Below are positions 2,437-51,627 of a stretch of 64,000 nucleotides of DNA, piece by piece (position 1 is the first letter of the stretch; each line of letters opens with the position of its first letter). Source of the DNA: Amycolatopsis mongoliensis (lineage in GTDB: Bacteria > Actinomycetota > Actinomycetes > Mycobacteriales > Pseudonocardiaceae); contig NZ_CP127295.1 in NCBI RefSeq assembly GCF_030285665.1, positions 1,364,001 to 1,428,000 of the forward strand. Direction: 5' to 3'. Under the pieces are notes generated by a model. It worked only from the letters and a program-made list of their open reading frames with translations. It ran no database searches and was not told the DNA's origin. Both the position numbers and the translations under genes were made by a program.

Positions 2437-3126
2437 ATGAACACCGCCCTCATCATCGGGGCCTCGCGCGGACTCGGTCACGCGATCGCCACCGAACTCT
2501 CCGACCGCGGCTGGCACGTGATCGGCACGGTCCGCGACCCGGACGCCCGGACGCCCCTGCACGACCTGGCCGACGTCTCGGACGGCCGGGTCGAGGTCGA
2601 GCACCTCGACATCACCGAGCCCGACCAGCTGCCGCCCCTGCGCGCACGGCTCGCCGGCCGCCGGCTCGACCTGCTCTTCGTCAACGCGGGCACCACGAAC
2701 AACCCCGGGACACCGATCGGCGAGGTGTCCAGCGCCGATTTCGTCGACGTCATGGTCACCAACGCGCTCAGCCCGATGCGCGTCATCGAGGCGCTCCAGG
2801 ACCTCGTGCCCACCGACGGGCTCATCGGCGCGATGTCGTCCGGGCAGGGCAGCATCACGAACAACACGGCCGGCTCGCGCGAGGTCTACCGCGGCAGCAA
2901 AGCGGCGCTGAACATGTTCATGCGCAGCTTCGCGGCGCGGCAGGCCGAGACCGGGCGCGCGCTGGTCCTCGTGGCACCCGGCTGGATCCGCACCGCCCTG
3001 GGCGGGCCGGACGCGCCGTTCACCATGGCGGAAACCGTGCCGAAGGTGGTCGACGTCCTGCTCGCGAAGCGGGGCCGCCCCGGCCTCGAGTTCCTGGACC
3101 GCGAGGGCAAGACCGTGCCGTGGTGA
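2437..3126 (+). CDS. SDR family NAD(P)-dependent oxidoreductase
   Basis: A 229-residue short-chain dehydrogenase. The Rossmann glycine motif GASRGLG is at residues 8-14, the structural NAG motif is in FVNAGTTN (about residue 87), the catalytic serine region is MSSGQGS (about 131), and the catalytic YRGSK supplies the Tyr-x-x-x-Lys pair (about 150). Length and motifs fit a classical SDR acting on an alcohol or carbonyl with NAD(P)(H). The C-terminus is short. It is divergent from the AsnC regulator and converges on purE with a 3-base gap. Substrate unknown. Confidence 0.85.
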   Translation: MNTALIIGASRGLGHAIATELSDRGWHVIGTVRDPDARTPLHDLADVSDGRVEVEHLDITEPDQLPPLRARLAGRRLDLLFVNAGTTNNPGTPIGEVSSADFVDVMVTNALSPMRVIEALQDLVPTDGLIGAMSSGQGSITNNTAGSREVYRGSKAALNMFMRSFAARQAETGRALVLVAPGWIRTALGGPDAPFTMAETVPKVVDVLLAKRGRPGLEFLDREGKTVPW

Positions 3127-3129
3127 CCG

Positions 3130-3627
3130 CTAGTGGCCGGTCTTCGCCCGCAGGGCCGCGTCCTTGTCCAGGACCAGCTTCTCCAGGTCCTGCTGGAAGG
3201 TCGCCATCTTCGAGCGCAGGCCCTCGTCGGACGCCGCCAGGATCCGGACCGCCAGCAGGCCCGCGTTGCGCGCGCCGCCCACCGAGACCGTCGCCACCGG
3301 GACACCCGCCGGCATCTGGACGATCGACAGCAGCGAGTCCAGGCCGTCCAGGTACTTCAGCGGGACCGGGACGCCGATCACCGGCAGCACCGTCGCCGAG
3401 GCGACCATGCCCGGCAGGTGGGCCGCGCCACCCGCGCCCGCGATGATCACGCGGATGCCGCGCGCCACCGCCGACGTCGCGTAGTCCAGCATGCGCTGCG
3501 GGGTGCGGTGCGCCGAGTAGACGCCGACCTCGTACTCGACGCCGAACTCGTCCAGCGCCGCACCGGCCGCCTCGAGGGTCGGCCAGTCCGAGTCGCTGCC
3601 CATGATCACGCCCACCTGCGGCGCCAT
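3130..3627 (-). CDS. purE: N5-carboxyaminoimidazole ribonucleotide mutase PurE
   Basis: Class I PurE converts N5-CAIR to CAIR in de novo purine synthesis in the cytosol. The 165-residue length is typical. Signature elements are [12 protein letters not shown] near the N-terminus, the SAHRTP catalytic histidine motif (about residue 40), the [14 protein letters not shown] loop (about 60-73) and the [15 protein letters not shown] segment. It sits 10 bases downstream of purK in the same orientation, so the two consecutive pathway steps are almost certainly co-transcribed. Confidence 0.97.
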
Positions 3628-48702: not shown

Positions 48703-49596
48703 CTACTTCGCGACGGCTTCCCGCACGGCGGGCACGATCTCCTCGGCCCAGCGCGCGGCGGAACCCGGGTCGGGGGTGGTGCCACCCGGCCCGAACAGCA
48801 CGAACCCGGCGGCGTCGTGCTCCAGCACCGCGCCGGTCAGCTCCTCGATCCACTGGTCCGGGGAGCCGCCGATCCAGCGTCCGTCGTCGGTGCGGGTGTT
48901 CCGCAGCGGCTCGGCCGTGATGCGGCCGGGGAAGTTGTAGACGGTGGCGATGTCAGCGGGATCGCGACCGGCTTCGGCCGCGGCCTCGTCGATCAGCGGG
49001 CGGGAGGTGCGGTAGCGCTCGCTGAGCCAGTCGGCGGCGTGGCCGGGCATCCAGCCGTCGGCCACGCGCCCGGTGACGGCCAGGGACTTCGGCCCGACCG
49101 AGCCGGTCCACACCGGCGGCATCGCTTCTTCGGCCGGGTCCAGGTTCGTGACCTGGTAGAACTCGCCGTCGAAGGTGACGGGCCCGCCGCCCCCGCCGAG
49201 CAGTTTGACCAGCCGGATGCCCTCCTCGAAGGCGCGGACGGCCTGCCCCAGGGTGAGCTTGGTGAACCCGAGCCGCGCGATGTCGCCCCAGAGCCCGCCG
49301 ACGCCCATCCCGAGCACGATCCGGCCACCGGTCAGCGCGGACAGCGAGGTGACGGTCCGGGCGAGCATCGACGCCGGGCGCGTCGGCAGGTTGGTGACGC
49401 TGACCAGGCCGGAGATCCGTTCGGTGCGCCCTAGCAGGACACCGATTTCGGCGTACGCGTCGAGCCGGTCGGCGTGGTAGGGGTGATCGGACACGGTGAG
49501 CAGGTCGAGCCCGGCGCGGTCGGCCTGGACGGCGAGCTCCAGGGTGCCCGGAACGGCCGCGACCGCCGTGGACACGCCGATGCCGAAGTGGGTCAT
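48703..49596 (-). CDS. LLM-class F420-dependent oxidoreductase
   Basis: A 297-residue luciferase-like monooxygenase-fold protein (FGIGVSTAVAAVPGTLELAVQADRAGLDLLTVSDHPYH, in parts; RIVLGMGVGG; MPPVWTGSVGPKSLAVTGR). This subgroup in actinobacteria uses reduced F420 rather than FMN. Such enzymes reduce or oxidise diverse small molecules. It is the first gene of a two-gene operon with MarR and lies right behind the doubled operator. Substrate unknown. Confidence 0.87.
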   Translation of the reverse strand: MTHFGIGVSTAVAAVPGTLELAVQADRAGLDLLTVSDHPYHADRLDAYAEIGVLLGRTERISGLVSVTNLPTRPASMLARTVTSLSALTGGRIVLGMGVGGLWGDIARLGFTKLTLGQAVRAFEEGIRLVKLLGGGGGPVTFDGEFYQVTNLDPAEEAMPPVWTGSVGPKSLAVTGRVADGWMPGHAADWLSERYRTSRPLIDEAAAEAGRDPADIATVYNFPGRITAEPLRNTRTDDGRWIGGSPDQWIEELTGAVLEHDAAGFVLFGPGGTTPDPGSAARWAEEIVPAVREAVAK

Positions 49597-49604
49597 GATT
49601 CCTC

Positions 49605-49664
49605 CCAGTATTAGTTCGTGTTACGAACCGACTACACATAGTTCTTAGCACGAACTAATACTGG
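49605..49664. promoter_or_regulatory. Double operator within a 16-bp inverted repeat (MarR control region)
   Basis: CCAGTATTAGTTCGTG (49605-49620) and CACGAACTAATACTGG (49649-49664) are perfectly complementary. Inside are two similar 17-base sites, AGTTCGTGTTACGAACC (49613-49629) and AGTTCTTAGCACGAACT (49640-49656), 27 bases apart. The block lies directly before the oxidoreductase/MarR operon and fits two MarR dimers on the same DNA face. Confidence 0.75.
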
Positions 49665-49736
49665 TCCGCCACGCCGCCGAAGTGCCCGGCGGATATTCGG
49701 TTCCCTCCGGGCGGCGCCGCGGCTAACGTAGTTCTC

Positions 49737-49817
49737 GCCCGGTGCGGCGGTGAGGGTTACTCCTCCGGTATCCCTTGGGTTCGAATCCCGAAAACCTTCA
49801 CCACTTCGATCTCGGGC
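49737..49817 (+). ncRNA. Y-RNA-like noncoding RNA, copy A (minimal)
   Basis: A stem GCCCG/CGGGC (49737-49741 with 49813-49817), an internal loop, then GGTGAGGGTT pairing with AACCTTCACC (49749-49758 with 49793-49802, one G-U) encloses a hairpin GGG-TTCGAAT-CCC (49777-49789) identical to a tRNA T-arm. The outer stem and its loop (TTCGATCT on the 3' side) are repeated in copy B. The RNA precedes the Ro60-type gene, where bacterial Y RNAs occur. Ends are set by pairing only. Confidence 0.6.
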
Positions 49818-49850
49818 ACACCAACGCACTCCCGGTGCGGGAAAGATCTC

Positions 49851-50026
49851 GGGAGCCGCGGCCACACCGATGCCCGGTGCGCAGGCGAGGGTTACTTCCT
49901 TGTAATGGGCAGGTCGGGGGTTCGAATCCCTCCCGGACCACTTCCGGTCCGGTAGCTCAGCCCGGCAGAGCAGCAAACGTACCTTCACCGACTTCGATCT
50001 CGGGCATCGCCGTGGCCGCGGCTCCC
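49851..50026 (+). ncRNA. Y-RNA (YrlA-type) with circularly permuted tRNA mimic, copy B
   Basis: Outer stem: a perfect 15-bp pairing of 49851-49865 with 50012-50026, then 9 bp (49868-49876 with 50001-50009), an internal loop and a Ro-type stem (49884-49895 with 49979-49989). The enclosed part is a tRNA with halves swapped. First the T-arm GGGGG-TTCGAAT-CCCTC (49916-49932), next the 3' acceptor strand CCGGACC plus A, and a 5-base link. Then come the 5' acceptor strand GGTCCGG (49946-49952), T8-A9, and a D-arm GCTC...GAGC with GG in its loop. Bacterial Y RNAs are known to mimic tRNA this way and to associate with Rsr, the next gene. Confidence 0.78.
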
Positions 50027-50042
50027 CCATCACGAGGGGGAG
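50022..50042 (+). promoter_or_regulatory. Ribosome-site-sequestering hairpin before rsr
   Basis: CTCCCCC (50022-50028) can pair with GGGGGAG (50036-50042), which is the ribosome site of the following ATG. Bases 50022-50026 are also the 3' end of the Y-RNA outer stem, so the two pairings exclude each other. This could link Y-RNA folding to translation, or simply terminate the RNA. Confidence 0.5.
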
Positions 50043-50044
50043 AA

Positions 50045-51627
50045 ATGAGCAGGTTCACCACCGCCCGCGCGCCCGCCGCGACCTCACCGGTCCGCGGCGA
50101 GGCCACGCCGTCCGCCGTCACCCACGAGGGCGGCGCCGGTTACGCGCGCGACGCCCGGTCCGAGCTCTTCCTGCTCGCCGTCACGAACATGGTCGGCGAG
50201 CACACCTTCTACGAGCCGGCCGGCGCGCGCGACACCCGCTACGCCGAGCTCGTCCACGCCGCGACCCTCGAGGATCCACAGTGGACGGCTCGGTTCCTGC
50301 GCTGGCTGCGGACCGAGGCGAACCTGCGCACCGCGTCGCTCGTCGGCGCGGCCGAGTTCGCCAAGGCGCGGCGCGACGCCGGGCTCGACGGGCTCGGCCG
50401 CCAGGTCGTCGCCGACGTCCTGCAGCGGGCCGACGAGCCCGGCGAGCTGCTCGCGTACTGGACTTCCGTGCACGGCAAGAACATCCCGAAGCCGGTCAAG
50501 CGCGGCGTGGCCGACGCGGCGCGGAAGCTCTACGACGAGCGCTCCTACGTCAAGTGGGACTCGGCGGCGCGGGCGTTCCGCTTCGCCGACGTCCTCGAGC
50601 TGACGCACCCGGCGAACCGCGACTCCGCCCAGGCCGAGCTGTTCAAGCACGTCCTCGACGAGCGGCACGACCGCGGGAACCCGCTGCCGGACGCGCTCCG
50701 GGTGCTGCGCGCCCGCGCCGAGCTGGCGGCGTGGGACGGGCCGCGCCGGCGTGCGCTGTTCGGGCAGCCGGACGCGGCGGACGTCCTGCGCGCGGCGGGC
50801 ATGACGTGGGAGTCGGTCGCCGGCTGGCTGCAGGGCCCCTGGACGCGCGCGTCTGGGAGGCGCTGATCCCGTCCATGGGCTACATGGCGCTCTTGCGGAA
50901 CTTGCGGAACTTCGACGAGACCGGCGTCTCGGACGAGGTCGCGCAGCGCGTCGCCGCGCGGCTCGCCGACCCGGCGCAGGTCGCGAAGTCGCGGCAGCTG
51001 CCGATGCGGTTCCTCTCGGCCTACCGCGCGGCGCCGTCGCTGCGCTGGGCGTGGGCGCTGGAGCAGGCGATCGCGCACTCGCTGGCGAACGTGCCTCGGC
51101 TGCCCGGCCGGACGCTCGTGCTCGTCGACACCTCGACGTCGATGAACACGGGCTTCAGCCGCGACGGCACCCTGCTGCGCTGGGACGCCGCCGCGGTCTT
51201 CGGGCTCGCGCTGGGTCGCCGGTGCGCCGACGCCGACGTCGTGTCGTTCTCGGACCGCCTGGTGGGCGGCACGCGCACCAAGACGTTCGCGCTGCGTCCG
51301 GGCGGGTCGCTGCTGAGCGACGTCGAGCGCTGGAAGTCCGGCGGGTTCTTCCTCGGCGGCGGCACGAACACGGCCGGCGCGGTGCGGAGGCACTTCGCGA
51401 AGCACGACCGCGTCGTCATCCTCACCGACGAGCAGGCCGGCTACGACGACGTCGGGCAGGCGCTGCCCGCGCACGTGCCGCTGTACACGGGGAACCTGGC
51501 CGGTTACCGGTACGGCCACGCGCCGTCCGGCACCGCGCACCGGCACACGTTCGGCGGCCTGACCGACCAGGCGTTCCGGATGATTCCCCTGCTCGAGGCG
51601 GGCAGGAACGCCGACTGGCCGTTCTGA
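50045..51627 (+). pseudogene. rsr: Ro60-type TROVE/vWA protein Rsr, frame broken near 50836
   Basis: Two frames together encode a complete 527-residue Ro60 homologue, a ring-shaped RNA-binding protein that holds Y RNA and acts in RNA quality control. Frame one (50045-50866) gives the TROVE HEAT-repeat ring (SELFLLAVTNMVGEHTFYE; HGKNIPKPVKRGVADAARKLY). The other frame, from about 50840 to 51627, gives the ring's end and a vWA domain with an intact DTSTS metal site. The change is equivalent to one missing C in the run at 50836-50839. It may be a true mutation, an assembly error or -1 frameshifting. Y-RNA genes directly precede it. Confidence 0.82.
50833..50839 (+). other. GGGCCCC heptamer at the rsr frame change
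   Basis: In the upstream frame this reads G-GGC-CCC, matching the X-XXY-YYZ pattern of -1 slippery sites, and a -1 slip here restores the full TROVE protein. A short GACG/CGTC self-complementary stretch follows at 50842. It is equally a homopolymer run prone to sequencing indels. Confidence 0.35.

What the first reader, a model, noticed from the sequence alone, without database searches (positions are those of the whole stretch)
49851..50026. Noncoding RNA containing a circularly permuted tRNA mimic, directly upstream of a Ro60 homologue
Seen directly: the T-arm and 3' acceptor strand (CCGGACC-A) come before the 5' acceptor strand (GGTCCGG), T8-A9 and D-arm. All tertiary-contact bases of the tRNA elbow (T8, A14, G18-G19, TTC loop, A58) are kept, and the acceptor stem is closed by a short loop. 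The mimic is carried on a long stem with a 15-bp perfect outer helix. Known: bacterial Y RNAs bound by Ro60/Rsr contain tRNA-like modules. Inference: this is a YrlA-type RNA with an unusually complete mimic, possibly a substrate for tRNA-modifying enzymes.
Basis: partly seen in the sequence, partly recalled or inferred. Interest (0 to 1): 0.85.

Follow-up and report, generated by a model that had tools for sequence, protein, structure and literature searches.

The report
Y RNA shaped like a whole tRNA
Next to the gene for the RNA-binding protein Ro60, this soil bacterium encodes a small RNA that imitates a transfer RNA with its parts in rotated order; bacterial Y RNAs are known to do this, but in many of its relatives and in phages the imitation also seems to keep an anticodon arm, which may be a new variant.

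Summary
Window 49851-50026 is a Ro60-associated Y RNA, 18 bases before a Ro60 (TROVE) gene: T-arm, closed 7-bp acceptor and D-arm in circularly permuted order, under a 15-bp outer helix. The permutation itself is known: Rfam's YrlA model has the same order (44.2 bits, E 1.4e-8, below its cut-off of 69), and a solved bacterial Y RNA superposes on tRNA with circular permutation.

In many relatives the mimic looks like a complete cloverleaf, opened inside the anticodon stem (between 28 and 29), with a closed anticodon arm. All five anticodon-stem pairs form in 47 of 79 units and 36 of 66 viral-contig units, against 2.5-3% of shuffles. U33 and A38 are nearly constant; in those 36, G36 and G37 always go together (9 of 9), as in tRNAs, less strictly elsewhere. 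The tertiary pair 15-48 switches G-C/A-U in concert. Some units match one isotype throughout (Glu). Against: many units could also form a continuous stem, and the window's own hairpin is weak and its Ro60 frame broken. Function is inferred. Verdict: new variant of a known kind.

The parts
49737..49817 (+). Upstream Y RNA unit A: same core (GCCCGGTGCG...GGTGAGGGTTACT / CCTTCACC...CTTCGATCTCGGGC), far end reduced to a T-arm (TTGGG-TTCGAAT-CCCGA), no acceptor or D-arm
   Evidence: R1 model hit 40.5 bits, E 8.8e-8; direct repeats of the core with unit C; same 77-nt unit in L025-L028
49826..49857 (+). Remnant B of a third unit (CTCCCGGTGCG ... GATCTCGGGAG) that in L026 and L029 carries a hairpin without tRNA features
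   Evidence: sequence compared by eye with L026, L029
49851..49865 (+). 5' strand of the 15-bp outer helix of Y RNA unit C
49872..50005 (+). Y RNA unit C, core to core (presumed Ro-binding stem plus permuted tRNA mimic)
   Evidence: R1 model 116.9 bits over all 132 positions (the window is one of R1's 31 seed rows); RF02553 hit 49902-49982
49872..49891 (+). 5' strand of the presumed Ro60-binding stem (GCCCG ... GGCGAGGG), paired with 49982-49989 and 50001-50005
   Evidence: covarying helices 1 and 2 (99.4% and 88.3% of cells paired); one mismatch in the window
49896..49910 (+). Anticodon-arm-like hairpin, shortened here (TTC-CTTGTAA-TGG-GC); 49909-49910 pair with 49973-49974 (positions 27-28)
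   Evidence: alignment of 31 units and parse of 79; weak in the window: 4 of 5 pairs, two of them G-U
49911..49932 (+). Variable loop AGGTC (44-48) and T-arm
49933..49952 (+). Closed acceptor stem: 3' strand, 6-nt cap, 5' strand
49953..49974 (+). T8-A9, D-arm, A26, and G27-C28 that close the anticodon stem
49982..50005 (+). 3' strand of the presumed Ro60-binding stem (CCTTCACC-GACTTCGATCT-CGGGC)
50012..50026 (+). 3' strand of the 15-bp outer helix
50022..50042 (+). Hairpin CTCCCCC-ATCACGA-GGGGGAG over the presumed ribosome-binding site; shares CTCCC (50022-50026) with the outer helix
   Evidence: sequence; a hairpin of this strength precedes Ro60 in 26 of 41 other loci against 19% of shuffles (where the window itself was not scored)
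50045..50866 (+). Ro60 homologue, N-terminal reading frame, ends in a frame break
   Evidence: ORF list; no Pfam hit on this piece alone; comparison with relatives
50872..51627 (+). Ro60 homologue, C-terminal part in another frame (TROVE)
   Evidence: PF05731, 49 bits on the piece; the only TROVE match of the genome

Best explanation
It is a Ro60-associated bacterial Y RNA of the YrlA-like kind, the last unit of a small Y RNA array upstream of the Ro60 gene. A long stem with a conserved core presents the presumed Ro60-binding site. At its far end sits a tRNA module whose strand order is circularly permuted: anticodon arm, variable loop, T-arm, 3' acceptor, cap, 5' acceptor, D-arm. In many units of Actinobacteria and phages the permutation opens inside the anticodon stem (between 28 and 29), so that a closed anticodon arm is kept beside the Ro stem. 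Shown here: anatomy, covariation, genomic link with Ro60, tRNA-like rules in the loop. Inferred: Ro60 binds the stem; the tRNA module recruits proteins that recognise tRNAs (PNPase as in RYPER, tRNA-modifying enzymes) to Ro60, the anticodon arm widening the set of partners.
For: RF02553 at E 1.4e-8 with the same element order. 31 aligned units: 96.1% of cells paired, covariation 0.441 against 0.146 shuffled, 0 of 500 shuffles as high; an unguided consensus fold finds T-arm, acceptor, D-arm and the anticodon hairpin. All five anticodon-stem pairs in 47 of 79 units (shuffles 2.5%); among the 62 with four or five, U33 57, A37 51, A38 59. Viral contigs, found by Ro60 protein and not used in any model: 36 of 66 with all five (shuffles 3.0%), U33 36/36, A38 35/36, G36 with G37 9/9 and no G37 without G36 in those 36. 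Levitt pair: at least 9 state changes on the Ro60 tree; 6 of 6 independent supported pairs change together, p 0.031. Of 296 class genomes, R1 matches at E<=1e-13 occur in 34, all among the 37 with TROVE. PNPase, Dus and TruB are encoded in this genome.
Against: No transcript or binding data. RF02553 score below the curated cut-off. The window's own anticodon hairpin is weak and its Ro60 frame broken: this copy may be decaying, or the assembly may hold an error. 17 of 79 and 20 of 66 units lack the closed arm by the 4-of-5 criterion. 29 of the 47 and 13 of the 36 full-arm units could also form 4 or 5 pairs of a continuous 27-31/39-43 stem, non-adjacent and G-U pairs counted, against 21-23% of shuffles: the closed arm may be one of two conformations. 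T8, A14, GG and TTCRA helped to choose the units, so their constancy is partly built in; the variable-loop length was chosen for best pairing (also in the shuffles). Levitt and loop rules could be inherited from captured tRNAs. At E<=0.001 R1 matches 187 of 296 genomes, mostly without TROVE.
Confidence: 0.72

Rival explanations
1. Decoy or sensor for anticodon nucleases: the exposed, variable anticodon loops bait nucleases that cut tRNA anticodon loops during phage attack or toxin activity, beside Ro60 and RNA repair enzymes.
For: An anticodon-like arm is kept and varies at 34-35; Y RNAs and Ro60 lie in or beside tRNA arrays and in phages; RtcB is encoded in this genome; the authors of PMC7790460 suggest that the YrlA tRNA-like domain, not itself a substrate, could competitively inhibit the anticodon nuclease (passages).
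Against: RtcB is not next to Ro60 here; the isotypes imitated are diverse and no nuclease is linked; no cleavage data.
Confidence: 0.13
2. Regulatory 5' leader: the Y RNA is part of the Ro60 messenger; folding of the outer helix competes with a hairpin over the ribosome-binding site (or an attenuator) and so controls Ro60 synthesis.
For: CTCCC 50022-50026 can pair either way; a second hairpin precedes Ro60 in 26 of 41 loci against 19% of shuffles, with a T-run behind it in several Streptomyces.
Against: No promoter or terminator call in 49560-50100; conservation of the shared CTCCC was not tested; phage Atuin (L078) has mimic units downstream of Ro60. It does not exclude the tether role.
Confidence: 0.1
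3. A permuted tRNA gene whose transcript is processed (Ro stem removed, 28 and 29 ligated, cap trimmed) into a working tRNA.
For: A cloverleaf in the order of the permuted tRNA genes of some algae and archaea (recalled, no call); RtcB ligase encoded.
Against: Caps as short as 2 nt (L025, L037, L041) leave little room for processing; the base after the 3' acceptor strand is not constant (T 26, A 21, C 16, G 16 of 79); loops often disagree with the isotype of the other arms.
Confidence: 0.02
4. Chance or a tRNA pseudogene pair: the junction of two tandem tRNAs gives the same order without function.
For: Tandem tRNA-Asn genes match R1 at about 60-64 bits, several of them over positions 27-102 only.
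Against: The eight tandem-tRNA matches read are ordinary intact pairs and show no Y core by eye; the Y units have core, covariation and Ro60 linkage across genera.
Confidence: 0.01

Closest known systems
YrlA, bacterial Y RNA (Rfam RF02553; Salmonella YrlA, PDB 6CU1)
   Same: Permuted order T-arm, closed acceptor stem, D-arm; stem to Ro60/Rsr; gene beside Ro60 (passages of PMC11472068 and PMC8394870).
   Different: Score below the Rfam cut-off. In the alignments of L132 and L066 the upper YrlA stem, which runs on from the anticodon stem, is marked unpaired; in its place a closed anticodon hairpin.
Ro60-Y RNA-PNPase complex (RYPER) of Deinococcus radiodurans
   Same: Y RNA as tether between Ro60 and an effector (passages of PMC8394870 and PMC7790460); Ro60 and PNPase genes are present here.
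   Different: No interaction tested here.
Permuted tRNA genes of algae and archaea (recalled, no call)
   Same: 3' half before 5' half.
   Different: Here closed by a tiny cap and carried on a long stem; not expected to mature into a tRNA.
tmRNA and viral tRNA-like structures
   Same: tRNA mimicry by a non-tRNA (compared side by side in PMC11472068, passages).
   Different: Other strand orders; no tag reading frame looked for here.

Membership tests
YrlA (RF02553) | Covariance-model score at or above the curated gathering score (69 bits) | tested here: not met
   44.2 bits in the window; 0 of 60 relatives over the cut-off; 5 of 6 further loci match at 37.4-47.8 bits, L050 not at all at E 0.001
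YrlA (RF02553) | Order T-arm, closed acceptor stem, U8, D-arm | tested here: met
YrlA (RF02553) | Anticodon-like stem running on into the upper YrlA stem (uggGgaa/uucCcca), no anticodon hairpin | tested here: inconclusive
   Unpaired there in L132 and L066, closed hairpin by covariation and consensus fold; but a continuous 27-31/39-43 stem of 4-5 pairs is possible in 52 of 79 and 35 of 66 units
Bacterial Y RNA in general | Gene next to a Ro60/TROVE gene | tested here: met
   a strong R1 match in 34 of 37 TROVE genomes and 0 of 259 without
Bacterial Y RNA in general | Long stem joining 5' and 3' parts | tested here: met
Bacterial Y RNA in general | Bound by Ro60/Rsr | not testable with these tools
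   needs pull-down
Bacterial Y RNA in general | Expressed as a separate small RNA | not testable with these tools
   needs RNA sequencing; no consensus promoter found
Ordinary tRNA | Continuous 5'-to-3' cloverleaf recognised as tRNA | tested here: not met
   ARAGORN 0 genes in the window; RF00005 15.6 bits, E 2.8

The most novel reading that the evidence does not exclude
Actinobacterial chromosomes and phages keep sets of Y RNAs that imitate whole tRNAs of several isotypes (Glu, Gln, Pro, the GTAGCTCA group), including working-looking anticodon loops that obey the position 36-37 rule of t6A37, m1G37 and i6A37. They arose from junctions of tandem tRNA genes, and bring anticodon-reading enzymes or anticodon nucleases to Ro60, as baits or sensors of tRNA damage.
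Probability: 0.2. Interest if true: 0.85.

Novelty: new variant of a known kind. Interest (0 to 1): 0.6.

Why it matters
What the tRNA mimicry of bacterial Y RNAs is for remains open; the authors of PMC7790460 list only possibilities (passages). A branch in which the mimic seems to carry an anticodon arm, with loop rules like those of modified tRNAs and isotype features, makes that question testable: which enzymes modify or cut positions 34-37 of a Y RNA, and does Ro60 gain partners through it? It also shows that such RNAs get annotated as tRNAs, as in two phage records seen here.

Tried and rejected
Single-sequence fold: misses T-arm and core stem; replaced by comparative folds. Rfam at gathering threshold: nothing; E-values used instead. 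A first parse with too narrow a filter for the TACTTC core set aside 31 of 80 units and was redone (79 kept, 1 dropped as weak). The three Levitt exceptions of the 79 are L046 at 2932, L065 at 2739 and L157 at 1548, which look like misparsed units; they stay in all counts.

Isotype concordance beyond Glu is partial: 13 of 57 top matches against 6.9 expected, p 0.009; viral full-arm units 5 of 36 against 2.15, p 0.055; viral units with four or five pairs 7 of 42 against 2.6, p 0.008; mean-rank tests p below 0.01 in each. Reference tRNAs came from one genome and the units are related, so these p-values are optimistic. Tree tests for pairs 27-43 and 31-39 go the same way but are not significant (median p 0.25 and 0.0625); two of its 44 Levitt labels (L050, L060) were read by eye.

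Weak R1 matches are mostly unexamined: 187 of 296 genomes match at E<=0.001. Ten such stretches were read (five from genomes without TROVE: L163, L164, L165, L177, L178): eight tandem ordinary tRNAs, L177 a tRNA pair with odd anticodons, L169 a Y-like unit in a TROVE genome. Promoter/terminator scan: nothing. Antisense Plastid-ycf2 and asR3 hits rejected (E above 1). Key papers (Chen 2014, Sim 2018, Wang 2018, Sim 2020; known from reference lists) are not held, so I cannot say that the anticodon arm is unpublished; the listings of searches and the passages opened showed nothing on it.

Full report
Observation. The stretch 49851-50026 reads as described. T-arm and 3' acceptor strand precede the 5' acceptor strand, T8-A9 and D-arm; the acceptor is 7 of 7 pairs with a 6-nt cap; the outer helix is 15 perfect pairs. 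G15 and C48 can also make the Levitt pair. The Ro60 start codon is at 50045, 18 bases after the helix. Folding beats 200 of 200 shuffles (z -4.2), but the minimum-energy fold lacks the T-arm and the core stem.

Known family. Rfam's YrlA (RF02553) matches 49902-49982 at 44.2 bits, E 1.4e-8, below the gathering score of 69; its consensus has the same order of elements. PMC11472068 (passages) reports circularly permuted superpositions of a bacterial Y RNA (PDB 6CU1) with tRNAs. PMC8394870 (passages) tells that YrlA is modified by DusA and TruB and tethers Rsr to PNPase. So a permuted tRNA mimic beside Ro60 is known.

The array. The window has unit A (49737-49817; T-arm only; R1 40.5 bits), remnant B and unit C (49872-50005; R1 116.9 bits). 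Searching with the Ro60 C-terminal piece gave 49 named loci in Amycolatopsis, Saccharothrix, Streptomyces, Micromonospora and others; in most of them one to four tandem core units were found upstream of Ro60, with the same core but different far ends: full mimic, T-arm with or without an extra hairpin, or no tRNA feature (none found there in L047, L064 and L069, of which L047 and L064 have one elsewhere in the locus).

Comparative structure. One search listed 45 full-mimic units and a selection of 38; I aligned 31, leaving out near-identical Amycolatopsis rows and irregular units (L038 second unit, L041, L045, L047, L054, L058 twice, L059, L062). For the structure I named, 96.1% of 1072 cells are paired, 23 of 35 pairs have changes on both sides, and the covariation score is 0.441 against 0.146 in shuffles; five rows with a 4-nt variable loop are misregistered by one base, which lowers the anticodon counts (92.9% and 93.5% paired). 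The unguided consensus fold found core stem, T-arm, acceptor, D-arm and a hairpin 26-29/37-40, but not the pairs 27-43 and 28-42. Leaving out irregular units favours the structure; the next two counts do not leave them out.

Anticodon arm. Among the 62: C32 55, U33 57, U36 41, A37 51, A38 59; positions 34 and 35 vary. A second set from IMG/VR contigs, found by Ro60 protein only (77 loci, 12 left out as repeats of the same contig; 74 new units, 8 dropped as tandem ordinary tRNAs), gives 36 of 66 with five pairs (shuffles 3.0%), U33 36/36, A38 35/36. There the loop ends UAA 21, GGA 9, AAA 4, others 2; G36 and G37 go together 9 of 9 with no exception (p 1e-8, relatedness ignored); with units of four pairs added there is one G36 without G37. 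In the first set the rule is looser (4 of 6, and 2 G37 without G36; p 0.0005). The host's own tRNAs use UAA, AAA and GG- endings too, but also C36 often. These are contexts of t6A37, m1G37 and i6A37 (recalled enzymology).

Two topologies. Of 20 viral units with under four closed pairs, 14 can form a stem continuous from 27-31 to 39-43, the canonical YrlA way; in the first set 13 of 17. But 29 of 47 and 13 of 36 full-arm units can form four or five such pairs as well, against 21-23% of shuffles, since both topologies share the 27-43 and 28-42 pairs. Constant U33 and A38 and the 36-37 rule favour the closed arm; an equilibrium between the two is not excluded. For L132 and L066 Rfam's upper YrlA stem is marked unpaired, while a phage VanLee unit at L076 2212-2288 fits it.

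Levitt pair. 51 G-C, 25 A-U and 3 others in 79 units; 35 G-C, 22 A-U, 2 U-A and 7 others in 66. On a tree of 44 Ro60 C-terminal pieces the state changes at least 9 times, and 6 of 6 supported independent pairs change both sides, p 0.031. Either the tRNA fold is under selection, or whole modules are replaced by tRNA sequence; I cannot separate these.

Isotype. Nine units have a Glu-type D-arm; four of these have a Glu anticodon (CUC or UUC) against 1 of 53 others, p 0.001, relatedness ignored. L197 and L200 have a Pro-like D-arm with anticodon UGG and TTCAAAT T-loop; Gln-like D-arms occur as well. Overall concordance is above chance but partial, so the loops have drifted or serve no decoding.

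Linkage and origin. Of 296 genomes of the class, 37 have TROVE; R1 at E<=1e-13 is found in 34, all of them TROVE genomes; the three other TROVE genomes have weaker best matches, two of them next to TROVE and one (G227) a tandem tRNA-Gly. R1 was built from this class, so detection there is favoured. Ro60 and Y RNAs lie beside tRNA arrays in seven loci (run on 19 of 49) and among tRNA genes in phages.

Mechanism. Most likely (inferred) the stem binds Ro60 and the tRNA module brings tRNA-binding proteins to it; PNPase, Dus, TruB and two RtcB genes are encoded here. The decoy reading rests on the exposed loop and the phage and tRNA-array setting. A leader role for Ro60 synthesis is possible: CTCCC can pair with the outer helix or over the ribosome-binding site, and such a hairpin precedes Ro60 in 26 of 41 loci.

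Limits. The window copy has a shortened anticodon hairpin and a Ro60 gene split by a frame break that six translated relatives lack; it is the genome's only TROVE match. No expression data. The central papers on YrlA were not held, so novelty of the anticodon arm is unverified.

Noticed in passing
window 50800-50870: The only TROVE/Ro60 gene of this genome is split by a frame break near 50838; six translated Amycolatopsis relatives are open through it. Assembly error or real loss is unknown.
   Followed up: partly
L076 2337-2408 and L077 2419-2492: Annotated 'tRNA-Arg(tct)' of Gordonia phage VanLee and 'tRNA-Ser(gct)' of Streptomyces phage Alone3 overlap Y RNA mimics; the anticodons given are those of the mimic's hairpin. 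ARAGORN makes like calls on Y units in L028, L038, L050 and L067.
   Followed up: partly
L041, L044, L046, L047, L055, L070, L072: Ro60 and its Y RNAs lie next to tRNA arrays: 9 to 27 tRNA genes in the stretches held. PMC6333295 (one passage) reports TROVE in 20 of 29 archaeal tRNA clusters.
   Followed up: no
L161-L166: Tandem tRNA-Asn genes with short spacers match the permuted model, a possible picture of how such mimics arise.
   Followed up: partly
window 50022-50042: Hairpin over the ribosome-binding site of Ro60 that competes with the Y RNA outer helix; in some Streptomyces (L042, L049, L051) it is followed by a T-run, like a terminator.
   Followed up: partly
window 49826-49857: Remnant of a third Y unit; its 3' strand GGGAG is also the start of unit C's outer helix, so the two pairings exclude each other.
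   Followed up: no
L047 about 2830-3200: The Asanoa ishikariensis Ro60 frame runs, after GMGYMA, into a stretch that looks by eye like an intein start (CLAEGTEIWMPDG...).
   Followed up: no
L080 1898-2650: Streptomyces phage JustBecause has an RNA ligase gene directly before Ro60, with a permuted mimic just upstream of it.
   Followed up: no
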